Positions 2,744 through 11,984 of a stretch of 64,000 nucleotides of DNA are shown here, piece after piece. Each line of letters begins with the position of its first letter. Position 1 is the first letter of the stretch. The stretch comes from Cyanothece sp. BG0011. GTDB taxonomy: Bacteria; Cyanobacteriota; Cyanobacteriia; Cyanobacteriales; Microcystaceae. The notes below the pieces were generated by a model that saw only the letters and a list, made by a program, of their open reading frames with translations, was not told the origin of the DNA and did not search any database. Both the position numbers and the translations under genes were made by a program. The stretch spans positions 1 to 64,000 of the forward strand of contig NZ_PRLH01000002.1 in assembly GCF_003013815.1 (NCBI RefSeq). The letters run 5' to 3'.

Positions 2744-3364
2744 CTATTTTCTAACCTCAATTTGACGAGAATTTTCTTTTAATTCAATCCATCCTAAGTC
2801 TTTTAAGCGATGGACTAAATTAGAAATCGTTACCCCTAATTCTTCAGCCATACCATACAGTTCTCGCCATTGTTTTAAATCACGATTCTGACCCATTTCT
2901 TGTAACTTAAAGCGAGGCATTAATAGGCAACTGGCGAAATATTGTGCCTGCCATTCAATGCCACTTAAGTTAACTTCGTTACGACATAATAAAGGCTCAA
3001 CTTTAATCATTTTTGTGTCTTGTTTTAAACAGTTTTCAACCCTATTTTTGTCAATATGTAATACCCAATGTCCGATTTCATGGGCGATGGTAGATTCTCC
3101 AAACCCTCCCCTTAATTCGGGAATTAATTCATTAATTTCAATTAACTTTTCTAAGGGTAAAATTCTGGCAGCAATGACTCCTTTTTCATCATTAGGAATA
3201 CTATCCCAAACCACGTCTAACCCCAAAAATTCAGCCACTCGACTAGCATCTAGGGGAAATTTTAACTTGTAGGTGGGTGTCTTTTCTATCTCCTGTAAAA
3301 TTTTGATGGTTTCTGTCTCAATTCTTTTTTTAGGAATGAAACGAAATGGCTTAAATATCTGCAT
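2744..3364 (-). CDS. ImmA/IrrE-family metallopeptidase
   Basis: A 206-residue protein with the zinc-protease motif HEIGHW (near residue 90) and a downstream Gln/Glu-containing helix (EWQAQYFASCLLMP, near 135), the order seen in ImmA/IrrE peptidases. The C-terminal third looks like a small winged-helix segment. It follows the XRE regulator gene by 3 bp, and its Shine-Dalgarno (GGGGAGGGG) overlaps the end of that gene, so the two are one operon. In known ImmA/ImmR pairs the peptidase cleaves the XRE repressor to switch on target genes. That role here is inference. Confidence 0.88.
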   Translation of the reverse strand: MQIFKPFRFIPKKRIETETIKILQEIEKTPTYKLKFPLDASRVAEFLGLDVVWDSIPNDEKGVIAARILPLEKLIEINELIPELRGGFGESTIAHEIGHWVLHIDKNRVENCLKQDTKMIKVEPLLCRNEVNLSGIEWQAQYFASCLLMPRFKLQEMGQNRDLKQWRELYGMAEELGVTISNLVHRLKDLGWIELKENSRQIEVRK

Positions 3365-3367
3365 GGT

Positions 3368-3715
3368 TTACCCCTCCCCATCTTCTTGTATCGCTTGATT
3401 AAATATTTTTTCTGCAAATTTGGGATTTTCTTTCATTCTTCTGAACAAAGTGGGCATACTTTTATAGTGTTCCCGCAAAAAGTCCTCATTGTCTTCGGGA
3501 AGTTTCCCTGCTAAAAAAATTAACTCGTCTGCGTCTAAGTCTAGATAACCTGCTAAATCTCTAATAATGTCCTCTTTTGGGGAATATTTAGCCCTATCAT
3601 TCTCTAACTTGGATAAGTAAGTAAAATCTATTTCTAGCTTCTGGGCTAACTCTCTTTGACTATATCCCTTCTTTTTGCGCCTTTGACGTATCACTTGACC
3701 AAAACTTTGACTCAC
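3368..3715 (-). CDS. XRE-family transcriptional regulator paired with ImmA-like peptidase
   Basis: A 115-residue protein with an N-terminal Cro/CI-type helix-turn-helix (residues 6-60: VIRQRRKKKGYSQRELAQKL, then TYLSKLEND). The start is GTG at 3715, supported by AGGAGA seven bases upstream. A short helical tail (residues 65-115) probably dimerises or is the protease-sensitive region. It is divergent from the coiled-coil operon and shares with it a 175-bp intergenic region that carries two identical 16-bp repeats. It is the likely repressor of itself and of that operon (inference). Confidence 0.9.
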   Translation of the reverse strand: MSQSFGQVIRQRRKKKGYSQRELAQKLEIDFTYLSKLENDRAKYSPKEDIIRDLAGYLDLDADELIFLAGKLPEDNEDFLREHYKSMPTLFRRMKENPKFAEKIFNQAIQEDGEG

Positions 3716-3749
3716 GGTTTCTCCTGGGTAACTTTTTTCTCAATCACAC

Positions 3750-3802
3750 TTGACTAAAAAATCAATATTAGTTTACCATAACAGTGTTGACTAAAAAATC
3801 AA
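3750..3802. promoter_or_regulatory. Twin operator-like repeats between XRE regulator and coiled-coil operon
   Basis: TTGACTAAAAAATCAA occurs twice without a mismatch, at 3750-3765 and 3787-3802, with a start-to-start distance of 37 bp (about 3.5 turns). Each copy is a partial palindrome (TTGA...TCAA). The position between divergent promoters suggests binding sites for the adjacent XRE protein. Confidence 0.6.
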
Positions 3803-3890
3803 CTTATCGGAGAATTCTAGAAAGTCAAAGGAAACCTTATCAGAAAGGTTACCCAATTTTTGAGTATTTAACACCAGGAAAATTACAATT

Positions 3891-4868
3891 ATGGCACAAG
3901 AAACCTTAACAGGGACTAAAGAACAAATTTTGTCTAATTTTACGCAATTCTTAGGCAAATATCATCAACAAGAATCCAGTGTTATCACCAAAGAAGAAGA
4001 ATTAGAAAAAGAAAAAAACAAGCAATTATTAGAGAAAGCTGGCGAATATACCGTTAATAATATTGTTAACAGTATGGCCTCTCTACAATTAGATTTTGGA
4101 CAAATTATTCAAGATTTATCCCAAAATTTAACAACAGAATCCACTAAATTAGATGAACTCAAAAAAGCCATTACCGTTAAACAAGAACAACTCGAAAAAC
4201 TTCGTCAAGTCAGGTTAGTTGCGGATGCCCTTTATATTTTAAGACAGGAATATCAAGAGAAATCGAGACGATTGCAAGAACAGAGTAATCAACAGAAAGA
4301 AAGCTTAGAAAAAGAACAAGAAAAAACAAGACATACCTGGGAAAAAGAAGCCGAAGAATTTGCCGCAAGAATAGAAGAAGAAACCGAATTAATTAATAAG
4401 CAACGGCAACAAGAAGCAGCCAATTATCAATACGAAATCCAAAAATCTCGGAAAATAGAACAGGATGAATATGAAGAGAAAAAACGTCAGCAAGAAAGGG
4501 AGTTACAATTACTCAATTTAGCTGAAGAGAAAGATTGGCAAGAAAGAGAAAATAGATTAGCCCAAAACGCAGAAGAATTTGCCGCCAATCAGCAAAAAAT
4601 AGAGGAATTAGAGGCAAAAATCAAAGAAGAGTATAATAAAGCAAAAGGAGAAGCTATTAAAGCTGCTGATAGAGAAGCCCAAGTTAAAATTGATTTACTT
4701 GAAAAAGAATGGGAATTAAATAAACAGGGCTATGAATTTAAGATCCAAGCTTTAGAAACAAAAATCACCCAAAATAACGAACAAATTTCAGAATTAAATA
4801 CCCAACTACAAAATACAACTAATCAGGCGCAAAACTTAGCTTTAAGAGCATTTCAAGGCAATAACTAA
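3891..4868 (+). CDS. Coiled-coil protein A of a tandem pair (unknown function)
   Basis: A 325-residue protein, almost wholly helical and rich in Glu, Lys and Gln. Residues 1-30 hold a short segment (KEQILSNFTQFL) and residues 50-100 a less charged helical part (NNIVNSMASLQLDFGQIIQD). From about 115 to 315 there is one long coiled coil. There is no signal peptide, membrane helix or enzyme motif. It ends LALRAFQGNN, very like the LAVKAIEG near the end of the next gene, and the order of segments is shared, so the two are probably diverged paralogues. It lies 33 bp upstream of protein B in one operon. A filament or scaffold role is inference; I do not recognise the family. Confidence 0.8.
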   Translation: MAQETLTGTKEQILSNFTQFLGKYHQQESSVITKEEELEKEKNKQLLEKAGEYTVNNIVNSMASLQLDFGQIIQDLSQNLTTESTKLDELKKAITVKQEQLEKLRQVRLVADALYILRQEYQEKSRRLQEQSNQQKESLEKEQEKTRHTWEKEAEEFAARIEEETELINKQRQQEAANYQYEIQKSRKIEQDEYEEKKRQQERELQLLNLAEEKDWQERENRLAQNAEEFAANQQKIEELEAKIKEEYNKAKGEAIKAADREAQVKIDLLEKEWELNKQGYEFKIQALETKITQNNEQISELNTQLQNTTNQAQNLALRAFQGNN

Positions 4869-4901
4869 ACCAGCACAATCATTAAATAAAGAGGTCTCAA
4901 C

Positions 4902-5999
4902 ATGGCACAAAAAATCAATTCTAAAAACACAAAAGCCCAAATTTTAGAAGCTTACGAAGAACTAATACAAGAAAAATCAGCATTAGAAAGTCAAGTCAAA
5001 CAACTAACAAAAACATCACCAGCAACTCCAACAGTTTTACCCAACCATCAATCGTCTAATTCTCCCAAGAAAAAAGTCATGACAACAGTAACCTCAGTCT
5101 CGGATAATAATATTACTTTGACCATTCAAAGTTTAGAAAAAGTTCAAAATAATTTTGGTAGTGCAGTAAGCCATTTATCAGAACAATTAATCGCTGAAGC
5201 TTCTCTGTTAGCAGAACTTAATAAAATTGCCACAGAAGAGTTAGCAGAATTAGAAGAATTACATAATATTGAAACCATTGAAGACGAAACCTTATCTAAC
5301 TTAATTGAAGAGTACGAAACCACTGCCAAAACCAATGAAGAAGAACTCAATAAACAACAAGAAAACTTAGCTAAAGAATTCGAGGAATTACAAAAAAATT
5401 GGCACAAAGAAAAACAAAATCATAATCGAGAAGTTCGAGAAAGAGAACAAGAATATTTGACTAATAAGAAACGAGATGAGGAAGAATATATTTATAATTT
5501 AGAATTAGAAAGACAACTAGATGAAGAACAATATCAAGCAGAAAAACAAGCTTTATATCAAGAATTAAAAGAGGCTAGAGAAACCCAAGAAAAACAATGG
5601 CAAGAAAGGGAAAAAAGTATTAGTCAACAAGAAAAAGAACAAGAAGAAACTAAAGCTAAACTTGAACAATTACAAGAAGAATTAGAACAGAAAATTAAAC
5701 AAGCTAAAGAAGAAGGAAAAGGTATTGGAACCTATCAAGCTAAAATTAAATCTGATTTACGTAGTAAAGAAATTGAAGGAGAAAAGCATAATTATCAACT
5801 AAGAATTGCTGCTTTAGAAGAAACGATAAATAATCAAGACATTCGTCAGCAAAAACTCTCTCAACAGTTAGAAGCATCCCTCAAACAGGTTCAAGATTTA
5901 GCGGTTAAAGCCATTGAAGGAACCTCAAATCGAAATTCCTTTGAAGCGATGAAAGAAATTGCCATCGAACAAGCAAAAAATCAACAAAAGAGTAAATAA
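4902..5999 (+). CDS. Coiled-coil protein B of a tandem pair (unknown function)
   Basis: 365 residues. There is an N-terminal KAQILEAYEELIQEKSALES helix (9-30, resembling the start of protein A), then a Ser/Thr/Pro-rich linker (about 38-70). A helical domain follows (about 75-130: NNITLTIQSLEKVQNNFG), then a coiled coil from 130 to 340 and a basic tail with KEIAIEQAKNQQKSK. RBS GAGG lies 9 bases upstream of the ATG. The linker and tail distinguish it from protein A. No catalytic motif is visible. It is probably co-expressed with A and likely forms hetero-oligomers with it (inference). Confidence 0.8.
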   Translation: MAQKINSKNTKAQILEAYEELIQEKSALESQVKQLTKTSPATPTVLPNHQSSNSPKKKVMTTVTSVSDNNITLTIQSLEKVQNNFGSAVSHLSEQLIAEASLLAELNKIATEELAELEELHNIETIEDETLSNLIEEYETTAKTNEEELNKQQENLAKEFEELQKNWHKEKQNHNREVREREQEYLTNKKRDEEEYIYNLELERQLDEEQYQAEKQALYQELKEARETQEKQWQEREKSISQQEKEQEETKAKLEQLQEELEQKIKQAKEEGKGIGTYQAKIKSDLRSKEIEGEKHNYQLRIAALEETINNQDIRQQKLSQQLEASLKQVQDLAVKAIEGTSNRNSFEAMKEIAIEQAKNQQKSK

Positions 6000-6065: not shown

Positions 6066-6953
6066 TTAAACAGCGAAACCTGGTTGTAACTGTTCAAAAG
6101 AACCGACATAATTAGGGGTGTCTTTAAAGGGTGATTGTGGTGAAGTGGGTTTAATGGTTTGGGGTGTTAAGTGAGTTCCGATAACCTTAGTTTCGCTAAA
6201 TTTGGCGTTAGTAAAATCAGCATCTTCAATAATAGCATTGGTTAAATCAGCCCCTTCTAAATCAGCCCCTCTTAAATTAGCCCCTTGAAGATTAGCCCCT
6301 CGTAAATTGGTATAATTTAGCTTAGCTCCTTTAAAATTAGCCCCTTGTAATTTAGCCCCTTGAAGATTACTATGGGTAAGTCGGCATTTTTCAAAATTGA
6401 TTTCTTCTAAATCGGCGTAACTTAAATCAACATCCTTGATAAAGGTATGACTTAAATTAGCCCCAAAAAAGGAAGTTTCTTGTAAATTAGCACAACTTAA
6501 ACGGGCTTGTGAAAGATTAGCCCAATTAAAATTGACTCCTGTTAAATTAGCTTCTCTGAGGTTAATGTTCTGAAGATTAGCCCCGCAACAATTCGCGTCA
6601 GATAAATCAGCTGCCCGTAAATTACTATGGGATAAATTCGCCCCACTTAACTTGGCTTTGACTAAAATAGATTTGACCATGAAAGCCCCTGTTAAATTGG
6701 CTTTGGTTAAATCCGTTTCAATCAGTTGAGATTGACTCATTTTCGCATAGGACAAATCTGCCCAGTTTAAACTGACTTGACTTAAATTCGATTTCGTTAA
6801 AAATCCGCGACTCAGGTTAATCCCCATTAAATTTGAGCGAGTTAAATCCACAGAAATTAACATAACTCCTGATAAATCAACTCCCCTGAGATCCAGTTCT
6901 CGAAATTGTCGATGACCTTGTTCATATTGTCGCAGTAGGTGACTAATATTCAT
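6066..6953 (-). CDS. Pentapeptide-repeat protein
   Basis: About 295 residues, nearly all of them tandem A(D/N)LxX pentapeptides from residue 15 to about 255, predicted to form a right-handed quadrilateral beta helix. ATG 6953 (MNISHLLRQYEQG) is preferred because the N-terminal helix before the repeats is a common cap; a TTG at 6974 would add seven residues. The final 40 residues are Pro/Thr-rich and not repetitive. There is no signal peptide or second domain. Proteins of this class are abundant in cyanobacteria and mostly of unknown role. Confidence 0.88.
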   Translation of the reverse strand: MNISHLLRQYEQGHRQFRELDLRGVDLSGVMLISVDLTRSNLMGINLSRGFLTKSNLSQVSLNWADLSYAKMSQSQLIETDLTKANLTGAFMVKSILVKAKLSGANLSHSNLRAADLSDANCCGANLQNINLREANLTGVNFNWANLSQARLSCANLQETSFFGANLSHTFIKDVDLSYADLEEINFEKCRLTHSNLQGAKLQGANFKGAKLNYTNLRGANLQGANLRGADLEGADLTNAIIEDADFTNAKFSETKVIGTHLTPQTIKPTSPQSPFKDTPNYVGSFEQLQPGFAV

Positions 6954-7364
6954 AGTAGGATTAGACACACTCAAAGATGGTAGCTAAAGTAAGTTGCAGT
7001 AAACTCAATTATTTTCTAGTTCATATCAACTAGCTCGTATCTCAATCAGAGATTAACTAATCTACTGCTATCAATTATTCTGGTATAACAGAATAAAAGT
7101 GTTCATGTATTTTATTTTACTCCCAAGAAAACGGGATTAGTGCCATCAATTCCAATTTGTTAAAAAACTTATTTGTTATTTAATTTTACTCACATTATTT
7201 TGTAAAGTATTTTATCTCATCCTCCGTATTAATATCTAAGTTTTAAATAATGTCTATTTTATTACTGAAACATTACTAAAATTTTTTCCCTGTTCTCACT
7301 GTTGGCAGAGGTATTTTCCCTGAGACTCTCTCATCATTAAATGATCATCTTGGGTGAAAATAAT
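6954..7364. other. Intergenic region, 411 bp
   Basis: AT-rich region upstream of the pentapeptide gene and downstream of the HTH gene. I see no ORF of note, RNA gene or strong hairpin. It probably holds the promoter of the pentapeptide gene. Confidence 0.5.
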
Positions 7365-11004: not shown

Positions 11005-11250
11005 AAAGCGATCGCAGTTTTAAATCGTGGGTTACGCCCTTTTTTAACCAAATGGCATCCTCTCTTACAAGTTTGGGAAGCAAAACGCCCTCTTGAGGTT
11101 AGTCTGTTAGTATATGAAAAGCAATGGGATCAAGAACCTCAATTACGTCAGGAATTAGAGCATCTGAGACAGGATCTCTATCAATATGCCCTCGCTTTGG
11201 CCGACATTGCTGGTATTGAAACATCGATAAAAGGAGACATTGACGGATGA
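11005..11250 (+). pseudogene. N-terminally truncated partner gene of TIR protein
   Basis: The frame is open from just after a stop at 11002-11004 and reads KAIAVLNRGLRPFLTKWHP, with a conserved-looking RPFLTKWHP core. It continues through a helical EPQLRQELEHLRQDLYQYAL segment to TGA 11248-11250. No good start exists in this frame, so the 5' part appears to be lost. The stop overlaps the TIR start as ATGA (11247-11250), the usual sign of translational coupling. Genes with this RPFLxKWHP core sit beside effector genes in other bacteria as I recall; that link is not proven here. Confidence 0.5.
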
Positions 11251-11984
11251 GCTCGGGTTTTGAGTTTGATGTGTTTCTCGCTCATAATAGTTTAGATAAG
11301 CCCCAAGTGCGGAAAATTTCGGCAAAACTGAGGGAACGAGGTTTAAAACCTTGGTTAGATGAGGAACAAATTCCGCCAGGGAAAGCGTTTCAGGATGAAA
11401 TTCAAAAAGCCATCCCTCAGATTAAATCAGCAGTGATTATTATCGGTTCTCAAGGGTTAGGAAATTGGCAAAAATTGGAACTAAAAACCCTCATTAGTCA
11501 GTTTGTTAATCGGAATACTTCAGTAATTCCAGTTTTGTTGGTGGGAGTGAATCAGATTCCTGATAATTTACGCTTTCTCAAAGAATTTCATTGGGTTAAA
11601 TTTGAACAAGAAGATGATAGTCGGGCTTTTTATAACCTAGAGTGGGGTATTACAGGGGTTAAACCGCCCTCAAACACCAAAACCGTCACCTTAAGCGCAG
11701 AAGAATGGTTGAACAGTGGTTATAACAAAGACGAATCAGGTGATTATCAAGGGGCGATCGCTGACTACAATCAAGCGATTAAACTCAACCCTGACTATGC
11801 TCTTGCTTACAATAATCGCGGTTTAGCCAAGAAAAGGTTAGGAGACAAACAAGGGGCGATATCTGACTACAATCAAGCAGCACAACTTTACTTACAACAA
11901 AATAAAATGGATGACTATTCAGATGCGCTTAACCGAGCGAAAAAATTAGAAAATAAAGGATTTTTTGGAGGATTATTCGGATGA
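11247..11984 (+). CDS. TIR domain-TPR repeat protein
   Basis: 245 residues. The TIR domain (about 4-135) shows FDVFLAHNSLDK (beta A and box 1), KPWLDEEQIPPG (box 2) and a helix with WQKLELKTLI, where the glutamate (near residue 78) matches the position of the NADase glutamate of bacterial TIRs. Residues about 148-216 hold two TPRs (GDYQGAIADYNQAIKLNPDY and the following repeat). The protein ends in a Gly/Phe-rich tail. Its ATG overlaps the stop of the truncated gene upstream. TIR-TPR proteins can be NAD-consuming defence effectors or signalling proteins; which applies is inference. Confidence 0.85.
   Translation: MSSGFEFDVFLAHNSLDKPQVRKISAKLRERGLKPWLDEEQIPPGKAFQDEIQKAIPQIKSAVIIIGSQGLGNWQKLELKTLISQFVNRNTSVIPVLLVGVNQIPDNLRFLKEFHWVKFEQEDDSRAFYNLEWGITGVKPPSNTKTVTLSAEEWLNSGYNKDESGDYQGAIADYNQAIKLNPDYALAYNNRGLAKKRLGDKQGAISDYNQAAQLYLQQNKMDDYSDALNRAKKLENKGFFGGLFG

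What the first reader, a model, noticed from the sequence alone, without database searches (positions are those of the whole stretch)
3368..5999. XRE/ImmA-controlled tandem coiled-coil pair
Two adjacent, diverged-paralogous coiled-coil proteins (A, B) of unknown family are divergent from a protease-sensitive-type XRE/ImmA regulator pair. Such regulator pairs usually govern inducible mobile or defence functions. A heteropolymer-forming cytoskeletal, scaffold or defence system switched on by damage is an attractive, undescribed possibility. Shared ends (LALRAFQG / LAVKAIEG) and shared order suggest gene duplication.
Basis: partly seen in the sequence, partly recalled or inferred. Interest (0 to 1): 0.7.

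Follow-up and report, generated by a model that had tools for sequence, protein, structure and literature searches.

The report
Stress-switch-controlled coiled-coil filament gene pair
A duplicated pair of cyanobacterial coiled-coil genes, apparently relatives of two known filament-forming proteins that keep Anabaena cells in straight rows, sits beside a dedicated repressor-and-protease switch of the kind that other bacteria use to sense DNA damage, and relatives carry other repressor types in its place.

Summary
The four genes are real: ImmA 2744-3364 (-), XRE 3368-3715 (-), A 3891-4868 (+), B 4902-5999 (+). A and B are full-length paralogues (hhalign score 361; 12 reversed or shuffled controls scored at most 43). 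A is in 249 of 388 genomes of the order; B follows A in 113 of 113 full-context loci. By synteny they correspond to Anabaena Alr4504/Alr4505, which I recall as ZicK/ZacK, published heteropolymer-forming shape proteins. The filament idea is sound but not undescribed.

New here is the control. XRE and A diverge around two identical dyads, TTGA-N8-TCAA, 37 bp apart, a pair found once in this 5.6-Mb genome. Repressor and dyads are conserved across families; in ten checked genomes the gene pair lies far from the repressor yet keeps the dyads. Thirteen of 113 loci have a non-orthologous XRE beside an M78-like gene, with another dyad; 46 of 56 Nostocaceae-type loci have a LexA-like box instead. All three are regulator classes known for stress or damage derepression. 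Best reading: a damage- or stress-induced, intermediate-filament-like pair. Induction in this organism, repressor binding and filament formation are inferred, and 72 of 113 loci have no adjacent XRE.

The parts
2744..3364 (-). ImmA/IrrE-type (M78) metallopeptidase, 206 aa, second gene of the regulator operon
   Evidence: Pfam Peptidase_M78 5.5e-9; PADLOC capP 5.3e-16; H-E-x-x-H and downstream E-W-Q-A-Q invariant in 20 aligned sequences; the only solved relative found is CapP 7t5t, E 0.00022
3368..3715 (-). XRE/cI-type repressor X1, 115 aa, GTG start
   Evidence: HTH_3 1.4e-13; 24 aligned relatives with a conserved C-terminal L-R-ENP-A segment
3750..3765 (.). operator dyad 1, TTGA-N8-TCAA, overlapping the -35 of a promoter-like site towards A
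   Evidence: promoter-like TTGACT-18-TACCAT 3750-3779
3787..3802 (.). operator dyad 2, identical to dyad 1; on the - strand it could supply the -35 of an XRE promoter (TTGATT-16-TATGGT, 8 of 12, by eye, below the tool's threshold)
   Evidence: one search lists no - strand promoter here, and lists another + strand candidate at 3787-3815
3774..3780 (.). overlapping -10 elements proposed for the two divergent promoters (TACCAT + / TATGGT -); the - one by eye only
   Evidence: for the + strand; sequence
3891..4868 (+). protein A, coiled-coil, 325 aa; corresponds to Alr4504 (recalled as ZicK) by synteny of relatives
4902..5999 (+). protein B, coiled-coil paralogue of A, 365 aa; corresponds to Alr4505 (recalled as ZacK); predicted helix 7-37, low-confidence linker, one helix 70-340, C-terminal helix 346-361
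   Evidence: mean pLDDT 78.8, pTM 0.28

Best explanation
A and B are paralogous subunits of an intermediate-filament-like heteropolymer of the ZicK/ZacK type, made on demand. In the resting cell the XRE protein dimerises on two dyads (TTGA-N8-TCAA) that overlie the -35 elements of two divergent, overlapping promoters, and so represses both itself/ImmA and A-B. A stress signal, most likely DNA damage (single-stranded DNA, or a redox/zinc signal as for Deinococcus IrrE), activates the ImmA protease, which cleaves XRE; A and B are then made together and co-assemble into filaments that brace the envelope/MreB system and cell-cell geometry while division is arrested or repair proceeds. Shown: genes, homology, pair conservation, dyads, their single occurrence as a pair in this genome, conservation of repressor plus dyads, other regulators in relatives. 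Inferred: binding, cleavage, signal, co-assembly, purpose.
For: B follows A in 113 of 113 distinct full-context loci. An X1 orthologue is divergent in 28 of those 113, 15 directly and 13 with C and E (and D in 12) between; paired dyads lie at X1 in 25 of 28; 0 of 10,050 dinucleotide shuffles of A upstream regions gave a pair. The paired dyad occurs once in this genome, backwards-pattern control 0. Trans cases: in G054, G080, G101 and G119 paired dyads lie both before A and at a distant X1 locus with genes C and D; in G039, G068, G090, G108, G125 and G118 they lie before A while X1 is elsewhere. X1 (E<=1e-45) and A (E<=0.001) co-occur: 147 of 172 X1 genomes have A, against 102 of the other 216 (relatedness not corrected). 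A second, non-orthologous XRE is divergent in 13 of 113, beside an M78-like gene (Pfam in 3 of 3 tested; by eye in 13 of 13), with its own dyad GYAAAC-N4-GTTTRC before A in 12 of 14 loci of the wider set. Nostocaceae-type loci have AGTA-N6-TAC[TC] before A in 46 of 56 (shuffles 2.6%) versus 6 of 248 upstream regions of other ORFs; 11 of 40 fit RGTACNNNDGTWCB exactly, the Anabaena LexA box as quoted in PMC3091678 (passages; compare AGWA-N6-TWCT, PMC13416735, passages). Alr4505 rose 20-fold and Alr4504 4.35-fold under BMAA (PMC8147232, passages); in two other conditions Alr4505 rose 6.67 and 3.57-fold with RecA 3.03 and 3.7-fold (PMC7354497, passages). ZicK/ZacK heteropolymers: PMC7766704 (passages).
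Against: No expression, binding or cleavage data exist here for this organism. PCC 7120 sequence was not found among the loci returned: the A/B = Alr4504/5 link rests on synteny, and Alr4504/5 = ZicK/ZacK on my recall. 72 of 113 full-context loci have no XRE beside the pair. Families f14, f15 and f31 have A but no X1 at E<=1e-45 (a few weaker hits, 1e-31 to 1e-41). 25 of 172 X1 genomes lack A, so X1 has other uses. In 4 of 28 X1 loci (L180, L251, L252, L253) no ImmA was found. The window's own genome lacks gene D. The BMAA papers ascribe alr4504/5 to NtcA, and GTA-N8-TAC lies before A in 22 of 40 Nostocaceae-type loci. PMC3091678 names no alr45xx gene among predicted LexA targets. Over 100 genomes the paired-dyad pattern gave 55 sites against 28 for the backwards control (my count), so a lone hit is not proof; location is.
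Confidence: 0.6

Rival explanations
1. A-B is a general cytoskeletal pair whose XRE/ImmA control answers to nutrient, redox or growth-phase signals rather than DNA damage; the filament works in ordinary growth and shape.
For: ZicK/ZacK are described as stabilising the normal trichome (PMC7766704, passages). Of 62 loci without XRE beside A outside the Nostocaceae-type group, 23 have paired dyads, 7 a LexA-like site (one has both) and 33 none of the three motifs. BMAA papers ascribe alr4504/5 to NtcA.
Against: Three unrelated regulator types of the XRE/M78 or LexA-like kind are found at the same pair, which is hard to explain without a shared stress signal.
Confidence: 0.25
2. The pair belongs to a defence or phage-conflict module: damage or phage infection releases the XRE, and A-B with C, D and E protect DNA or block the phage.
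For: XRE/ImmA resemble CapH/CapP (PADLOC capH 9.3e-11, capP 5.3e-16; CapP the only solved relative). In families f2 and f8 the order is C-D-E-A-B, and D has relatives in 10 IMG/VR contigs and on 4 plasmids.
Against: No defence effector match in A or B; by eye the pair lies between an ABC ATPase and a pentapeptide-repeat gene, with mraY and carA nearby; two viral-contig scans, each with two short peptide patterns, found no A or B; the window genome has no D.
Confidence: 0.12
3. XRE/ImmA is a stand-alone toxin-antitoxin-like unit and its nearness to A-B is chance.
For: Such pairs are sometimes filed as type II TA (PMC10538038, abstract in listing). X1 occurs without A in 25 of 172 genomes.
Against: Paired dyads lie before A even when X1 is elsewhere; orthologous X1 divergent in 28 and a second XRE in 13 of 113 loci.
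Confidence: 0.03

Closest known systems
ZicK/ZacK (recalled as Alr4504/Alr4505) of Anabaena sp. PCC 7120
   Same: coiled-coil proteins, interdependent heteropolymers by report; the relatives' pair sits at phoU-sphS-sphR, which in PCC 7120 are all4501-all4502-all4503, next in number to alr4504/5
   Different: the window's organism has them behind an XRE/ImmA switch; no such control is mentioned in the passages that I saw; whether the host is filamentous is not known to me
DdrO/IrrE (PprI) radiation response of Deinococcus
   Same: repressor plus M78 metallopeptidase; derepression by cleavage after damage (PMC10904395, PMC7907104: abstracts in listings)
   Different: there several repair genes; here one filament pair, a different dyad, and no evidence yet of the signal
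CapH/CapP of CBASS
   Same: XRE and M78 gene pair controlling neighbouring genes (recalled); PADLOC and PDB matches
   Different: no CBASS core gene matched A or B; matches are to the regulators only
LexA/SOS regulon of Nostoc/Anabaena
   Same: LexA-like box before the pair in relatives
   Different: absent from the window's group of loci, which have the XRE dyads instead

Membership tests
ZicK/ZacK heteropolymer-forming coiled-coil proteins | sequence homology to Alr4504 and Alr4505 | tested here: inconclusive
ZicK/ZacK heteropolymer-forming coiled-coil proteins | tandem pair of distinct coiled-coil genes | tested here: met
   113 of 113 full-context loci; long single helix predicted for B
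ZicK/ZacK heteropolymer-forming coiled-coil proteins | interdependent filament assembly; trichome shape phenotype | not testable with these tools
   needs bench work
XRE-ImmA/IrrE (DdrO-IrrE-like) derepression module | XRE repressor gene followed by M78 peptidase with HExxH | tested here: met
XRE-ImmA/IrrE (DdrO-IrrE-like) derepression module | repressor binds dyads at its own and target promoters | tested here: inconclusive
   conserved paired dyads at both; binding not tested
XRE-ImmA/IrrE (DdrO-IrrE-like) derepression module | stress-dependent cleavage of the repressor | not testable with these tools
   needs bench work
CBASS CapH/CapP | CBASS core genes under their control | tested here: not met
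   A matches no PADLOC model and B only LmuB at E 0.17
LexA regulon (window locus) | LexA-like box at the promoter | tested here: not met
   0 of 39 X1-direct loci, the window's group, have AGTA-N6-TAC[TC] in the 450 bp before A
type II toxin-antitoxin | toxic partner | not testable with these tools
   toxicity needs bench work; the only enzyme domain found is the M78 peptidase

The most novel reading that the evidence does not exclude
Cyanobacteria have a damage-inducible intermediate-filament-like system: a heteropolymeric coiled-coil pair whose stress control is so important that it has been wired in at least three ways, to two unrelated XRE/M78 switches and to LexA, and which in some families is made together with a phage-related protein (D) and two small partners (C, E) as one stress operon.
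Probability: 0.45. Interest if true: 0.82.

Novelty: new variant of a known kind. Interest (0 to 1): 0.64.

Why it matters
Bacterial intermediate-filament-like proteins are mostly thought of as constant shape scaffolds. If this pair is switched on by damage, filaments become part of a bacterial stress response, and ZicK/ZacK biology in Anabaena would have to be re-read in that light (mutant phenotypes under DNA damage, not only in normal growth). The different regulators in relatives give three separate, cheap tests of the same prediction in culturable cyanobacteria. It also gives two candidate XRE operator motifs with assigned repressors, and three uncharacterised gene families (C, D, E) in the same putative regulon.

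Tried and rejected
Family searches of A and B (Pfam, NCBIfam, PADLOC, PHROGs) gave only PHROG 29668 of unknown function as a full-length match; the NCBIfam PhoP match (A, 8.1e-5, far below its cut-off) and PDB coronavirus-spike matches were put down to coiled-coil bias. tblastn of A and B in phages found nothing; a Nostocaceae-type B found Bacillus phage G gp268 (27% over 93%, E 3e-11), left as unproven because of coiled-coil bias; the annotation around it was not searched for a partner. tblastn of A in plasmids found one record, of Kovacikia. Viral-contig scans for A and B found none. C, D and E gave no Pfam, PHROG or NCBIfam match below E 0.03. The AlphaFold model of D failed (pLDDT 35.6), so no fold search was run; its strand/helix order hints at an OB-like fold, too weak to claim. 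B's model is essentially one long helix, so no fold search was run either. A search for papers holding XRE, ImmA, cyanobacteria and coiled-coil together found none. The three papers that hold ZicK and ZacK with Anabaena and the three with alr4504/alr4505 were seen in passages, which mention no XRE/ImmA or LexA control; PMC7002697 was seen in passages and not used. The FEBS J paper itself is not held, so 'not in print' is not claimed. The listed genomes of genera g13 and g7 of the window's family lack A (Synechocystis and Microcystis are my guesses from size).

Rows dropped: and 96 loci with too little flanking sequence or duplicate A sequences were left out; the full-context sample is hand-picked, mostly one per genus, plus the loci of one Nostocaceae-type scan, so its proportions are not population rates. 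One search's tally of B adjacency was discarded because truncated loci entered it; only its shuffle count is used. 'Nostocaceae-type' is my label for family f33 and the loci, from the named records; one search left two such loci (L174, L235, both LexA-like) in its 'none_other' group.
Full report
WHAT IS THERE. The window holds, from left to right, ImmA (2744-3364, -), XRE (3368-3715, -), A (3891-4868, +) and B (4902-5999, +). XRE is a cI/SinR-type HTH protein and ImmA an M78 peptidase with an intact HEIGH motif. A and B match no Pfam family at E<=1; PHROG 29668, unknown function, matches both.

A AND B ARE TRUE PARALOGUES. Profiles of 25 A and 25 B proteins align over 333 columns, E 2.6e-51, score 361. 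Coiled-coil bias does not explain this: reversed B scores 27, ten heptad-block shuffles of B 18-43 (two of them reach probability 63-67% over 70-78 columns), A against reversed A 19. B carries an extra linker and a strongly conserved C-terminal tail. AlphaFold gives B as helix 7-37, a low-confidence linker, one continuous helix 70-340 and a short helix 346-361 (mean pLDDT 78.8), as expected of a rod protein.

HOW WIDESPREAD. At E<=0.001 A is in 32 of 59 near relatives, the own genome included, and in 249 of 388 genomes of the order, a few of these being weak or partial hits; B hits 52 of 388 genomes in a class-wide sample, 18 of them outside the order by kinship label. In 113 distinct loci with enough flanking DNA, B follows A on the same strand in all 113; in a few (L170, L173) the two are about 1.6-2 kb apart.

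IDENTITY. In PCC 7120 phoU, sphS and sphR are all4501, all4502 and all4503 (PMC7564538, one passage), so the next two rightward numbers, alr4504 and alr4505, correspond to A and B if numbering follows gene order. That these two are ZicK and ZacK is my recall of the FEBS J abstract (10.1111/febs.15630, not held). ZicK/ZacK are reported to be strictly interdependent heteropolymer formers that could stabilise the linear trichome (PMC7766704, passages) and are called elongasome-associated (PMC8262864, passage).

THE SWITCH. Between XRE and A lie two identical 16-bp dyads, TTGACTAAAAAATCAA, at 3750-3765 and 3787-3802. The first overlaps the -35 of a promoter-like TTGACT-18-TACCAT towards A; the tool lists two further + strand candidates before A (3787-3815, 3860-3889) and none on the - strand at the dyads. 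By eye the second dyad, read on the other strand, gives a weaker -35/-10 (TTGATT-16-TATGGT) towards XRE, so the two promoters would overlap face to face. The paired dyad (gap 15-30) occurs once in the 5.6-Mb genome; the same pattern read backwards occurs nowhere. No pair arose in 10,050 dinucleotide shuffles of A upstream regions.

CONSERVATION. Of 113 full-context loci, 28 have an orthologous XRE (X1) divergent from the pair, 15 directly and 13 with other genes between; 24 of 28 have a recognised ImmA, the four without being L180, L251, L252 and L253; 25 of 28 have paired dyads at X1, the other three (L160, L162, L168) a single dyad. Across 388 genomes, 147 of 172 with a strong X1 (E<=1e-45) also have A, against 102 of the other 216 (relatedness not corrected). 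Outside family f33, 147 of 206 A-bearing genomes have X1; in f33 none of 43 at that cut-off, two having a weaker hit of 2.1e-41.

TRANS REGULON. In family f20 the pair and X1 are far apart. In G054 paired dyads lie at C13:42224-42275 just before A (42346) and again at C13:315666-315719 between X1 (315787) and genes C, D and E; G080 (C and D seen), G101 and G119 (C, D and E seen) are alike. In G039, G068, G090, G108, G125 and G118 the dyads stand before A while X1 is elsewhere. A caution: over the 100 genomes the pattern gave 55 sites in 43 genomes and its backwards control 28 (my count from the table), so position, not mere presence, carries the argument.

OPERON PARTNERS. In 13 loci of families f2 and f8 and of named Planktothrix and a related Oscillatoriales record (L110, L112, L113), genes C and E lie between X1 and A in 13 of 13 and D in 12 of 13 (L130 lacks it), in the direction of A-B. 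C (about 88 aa), D (about 230 aa, 75% mean column identity in 14 sequences) and E (about 120 aa with a CxCxxGNRCxxC-like end) match no family below E 0.03. D is in 64 of 291 genomes of the order but not in the window's, in 10 IMG/VR contigs among phage-like genes in the six that I looked at (by eye), and on 4 plasmids. Its structure prediction failed.

OTHER REGULATORS AT THE SAME PAIR. In 13 of the 113 loci (14 in the wider set) a different XRE, scoring 23-31 bits to the X1 profile, stands divergent within 400 bp, beside a gene of about 283-330 aa that is M78-like (Pfam in 3 of 3 tested; by eye in 13 of 13). Before A there is another dyad, GYAAAC-N4-GTTTRC, in 12 of 14 and in none of the other groups. 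Its M78 protein reads HELME where HExxH is usual (by eye). In the Nostocaceae-type group there is no X1 match beside A and no X1 dyad pair, but AGTA-N6-TAC[TC] lies before A in 46 of 56 (shuffles 2.6%), against 6 of 248 upstream regions of other ORFs and 17 of 989 windows of 450 bp in the same loci. Eleven of 40 sites fit RGTACNNNDGTWCB letter for letter, the Anabaena LexA box quoted in PMC3091678 (passages; similar AGWA-N6-TWCT in PMC13416735, passages). PMC3091678 names no alr45xx gene. The motifs separate by group: paired X1 dyads / second dyad / LexA-like are 29/0/0 in 39 X1-direct loci, 0/12/0 in 14 second-XRE loci, 0/0/46 in 56 Nostocaceae-type loci, and 23/0/7 in 62 other loci without XRE beside A. 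X1 loci with C-E between (28) have none before A; their dyads lie before C.

EXPRESSION EVIDENCE. Under BMAA, Alr4505 rose 20-fold and Alr4504 4.35-fold in diazotrophic Nostoc PCC 7120 (PMC8147232, passages); in two other conditions Alr4505 rose 6.67 and 3.57-fold with RecA 3.03 and 3.7-fold (PMC7354497, passages). The authors link the genes to NtcA and guess at DNA metabolism and a toxin-antitoxin link; BMAA is not a clean DNA-damage treatment.

MECHANISM. The most economical account is a ZicK/ZacK-type heteropolymer under a DdrO/IrrE-like switch: repressor on two dyads, M78 protease activated by stress, joint derepression of A and B, co-assembly. PprI/IrrE is reported to sense single-stranded DNA (PMC10904395, title and abstract in listing) or to act through a redox/zinc signal (PMC7907104, title and abstract in listing). 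Signal, cleavage, binding and assembly are inferred here.

LIMITS. The full-context sample is hand-picked and uneven; 72 of its 113 loci have no XRE beside the pair, and 33 of 62 such loci outside the Nostocaceae-type group show none of the three motifs. Families f14, f15 and f31 have A but no strong X1. X1 also occurs without A (25 of 172) and beside other genes (L355, L358). No experiment bears on the window organism itself.

Noticed in passing
L110:3325-4870, L129:2429-3979 and other f2/f8 loci: Three uncharacterised gene families C, D, E between X1 and A-B in one divergent gene row; D is highly conserved and has relatives in viral contigs (L183-L192) and plasmids.
   Followed up: partly
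L181:9233-10102, L239:3641-4513, L248:5562-6452: The M78 protein of the second XRE module reads HELME where the metallopeptidase HExxH is expected; it may use another ligand or be a non-catalytic sensor.
   Followed up: no
L355:1168-5969, L358:1116-5920 (family f11): X1/ImmA divergent from a different set of three genes (about 200, 292 and 739 aa), while the sampled f11 pairs (L141-L143) lack the dyads: X1 has other clients.
   Followed up: no
G058 and G273: Six and five matches to gene D, several on different contigs, as if carried by plasmids or other mobile elements.
   Followed up: no
L363 (Bacillus phage G, gp268): A jumbo-phage protein aligns with a Nostocaceae-type B over 93% of its length at 27% identity; coiled-coil bias not excluded.
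   Followed up: partly
window 11247-11984 (+): An ORF that by eye joins a TIR-like N-terminus to TPR repeats; not part of this finding.
   Followed up: no
L007 (G002, same genus): A close relative has A and B but no XRE, ImmA or dyads beside them and no X1 hit at E<=1e-22 in the genome: a natural comparison without the regulator.
   Followed up: no
window 6066-6974 (-): Pentapeptide-repeat-like protein (A(D/N)LXX repeats, by eye) directly downstream of B, convergent.
   Followed up: no
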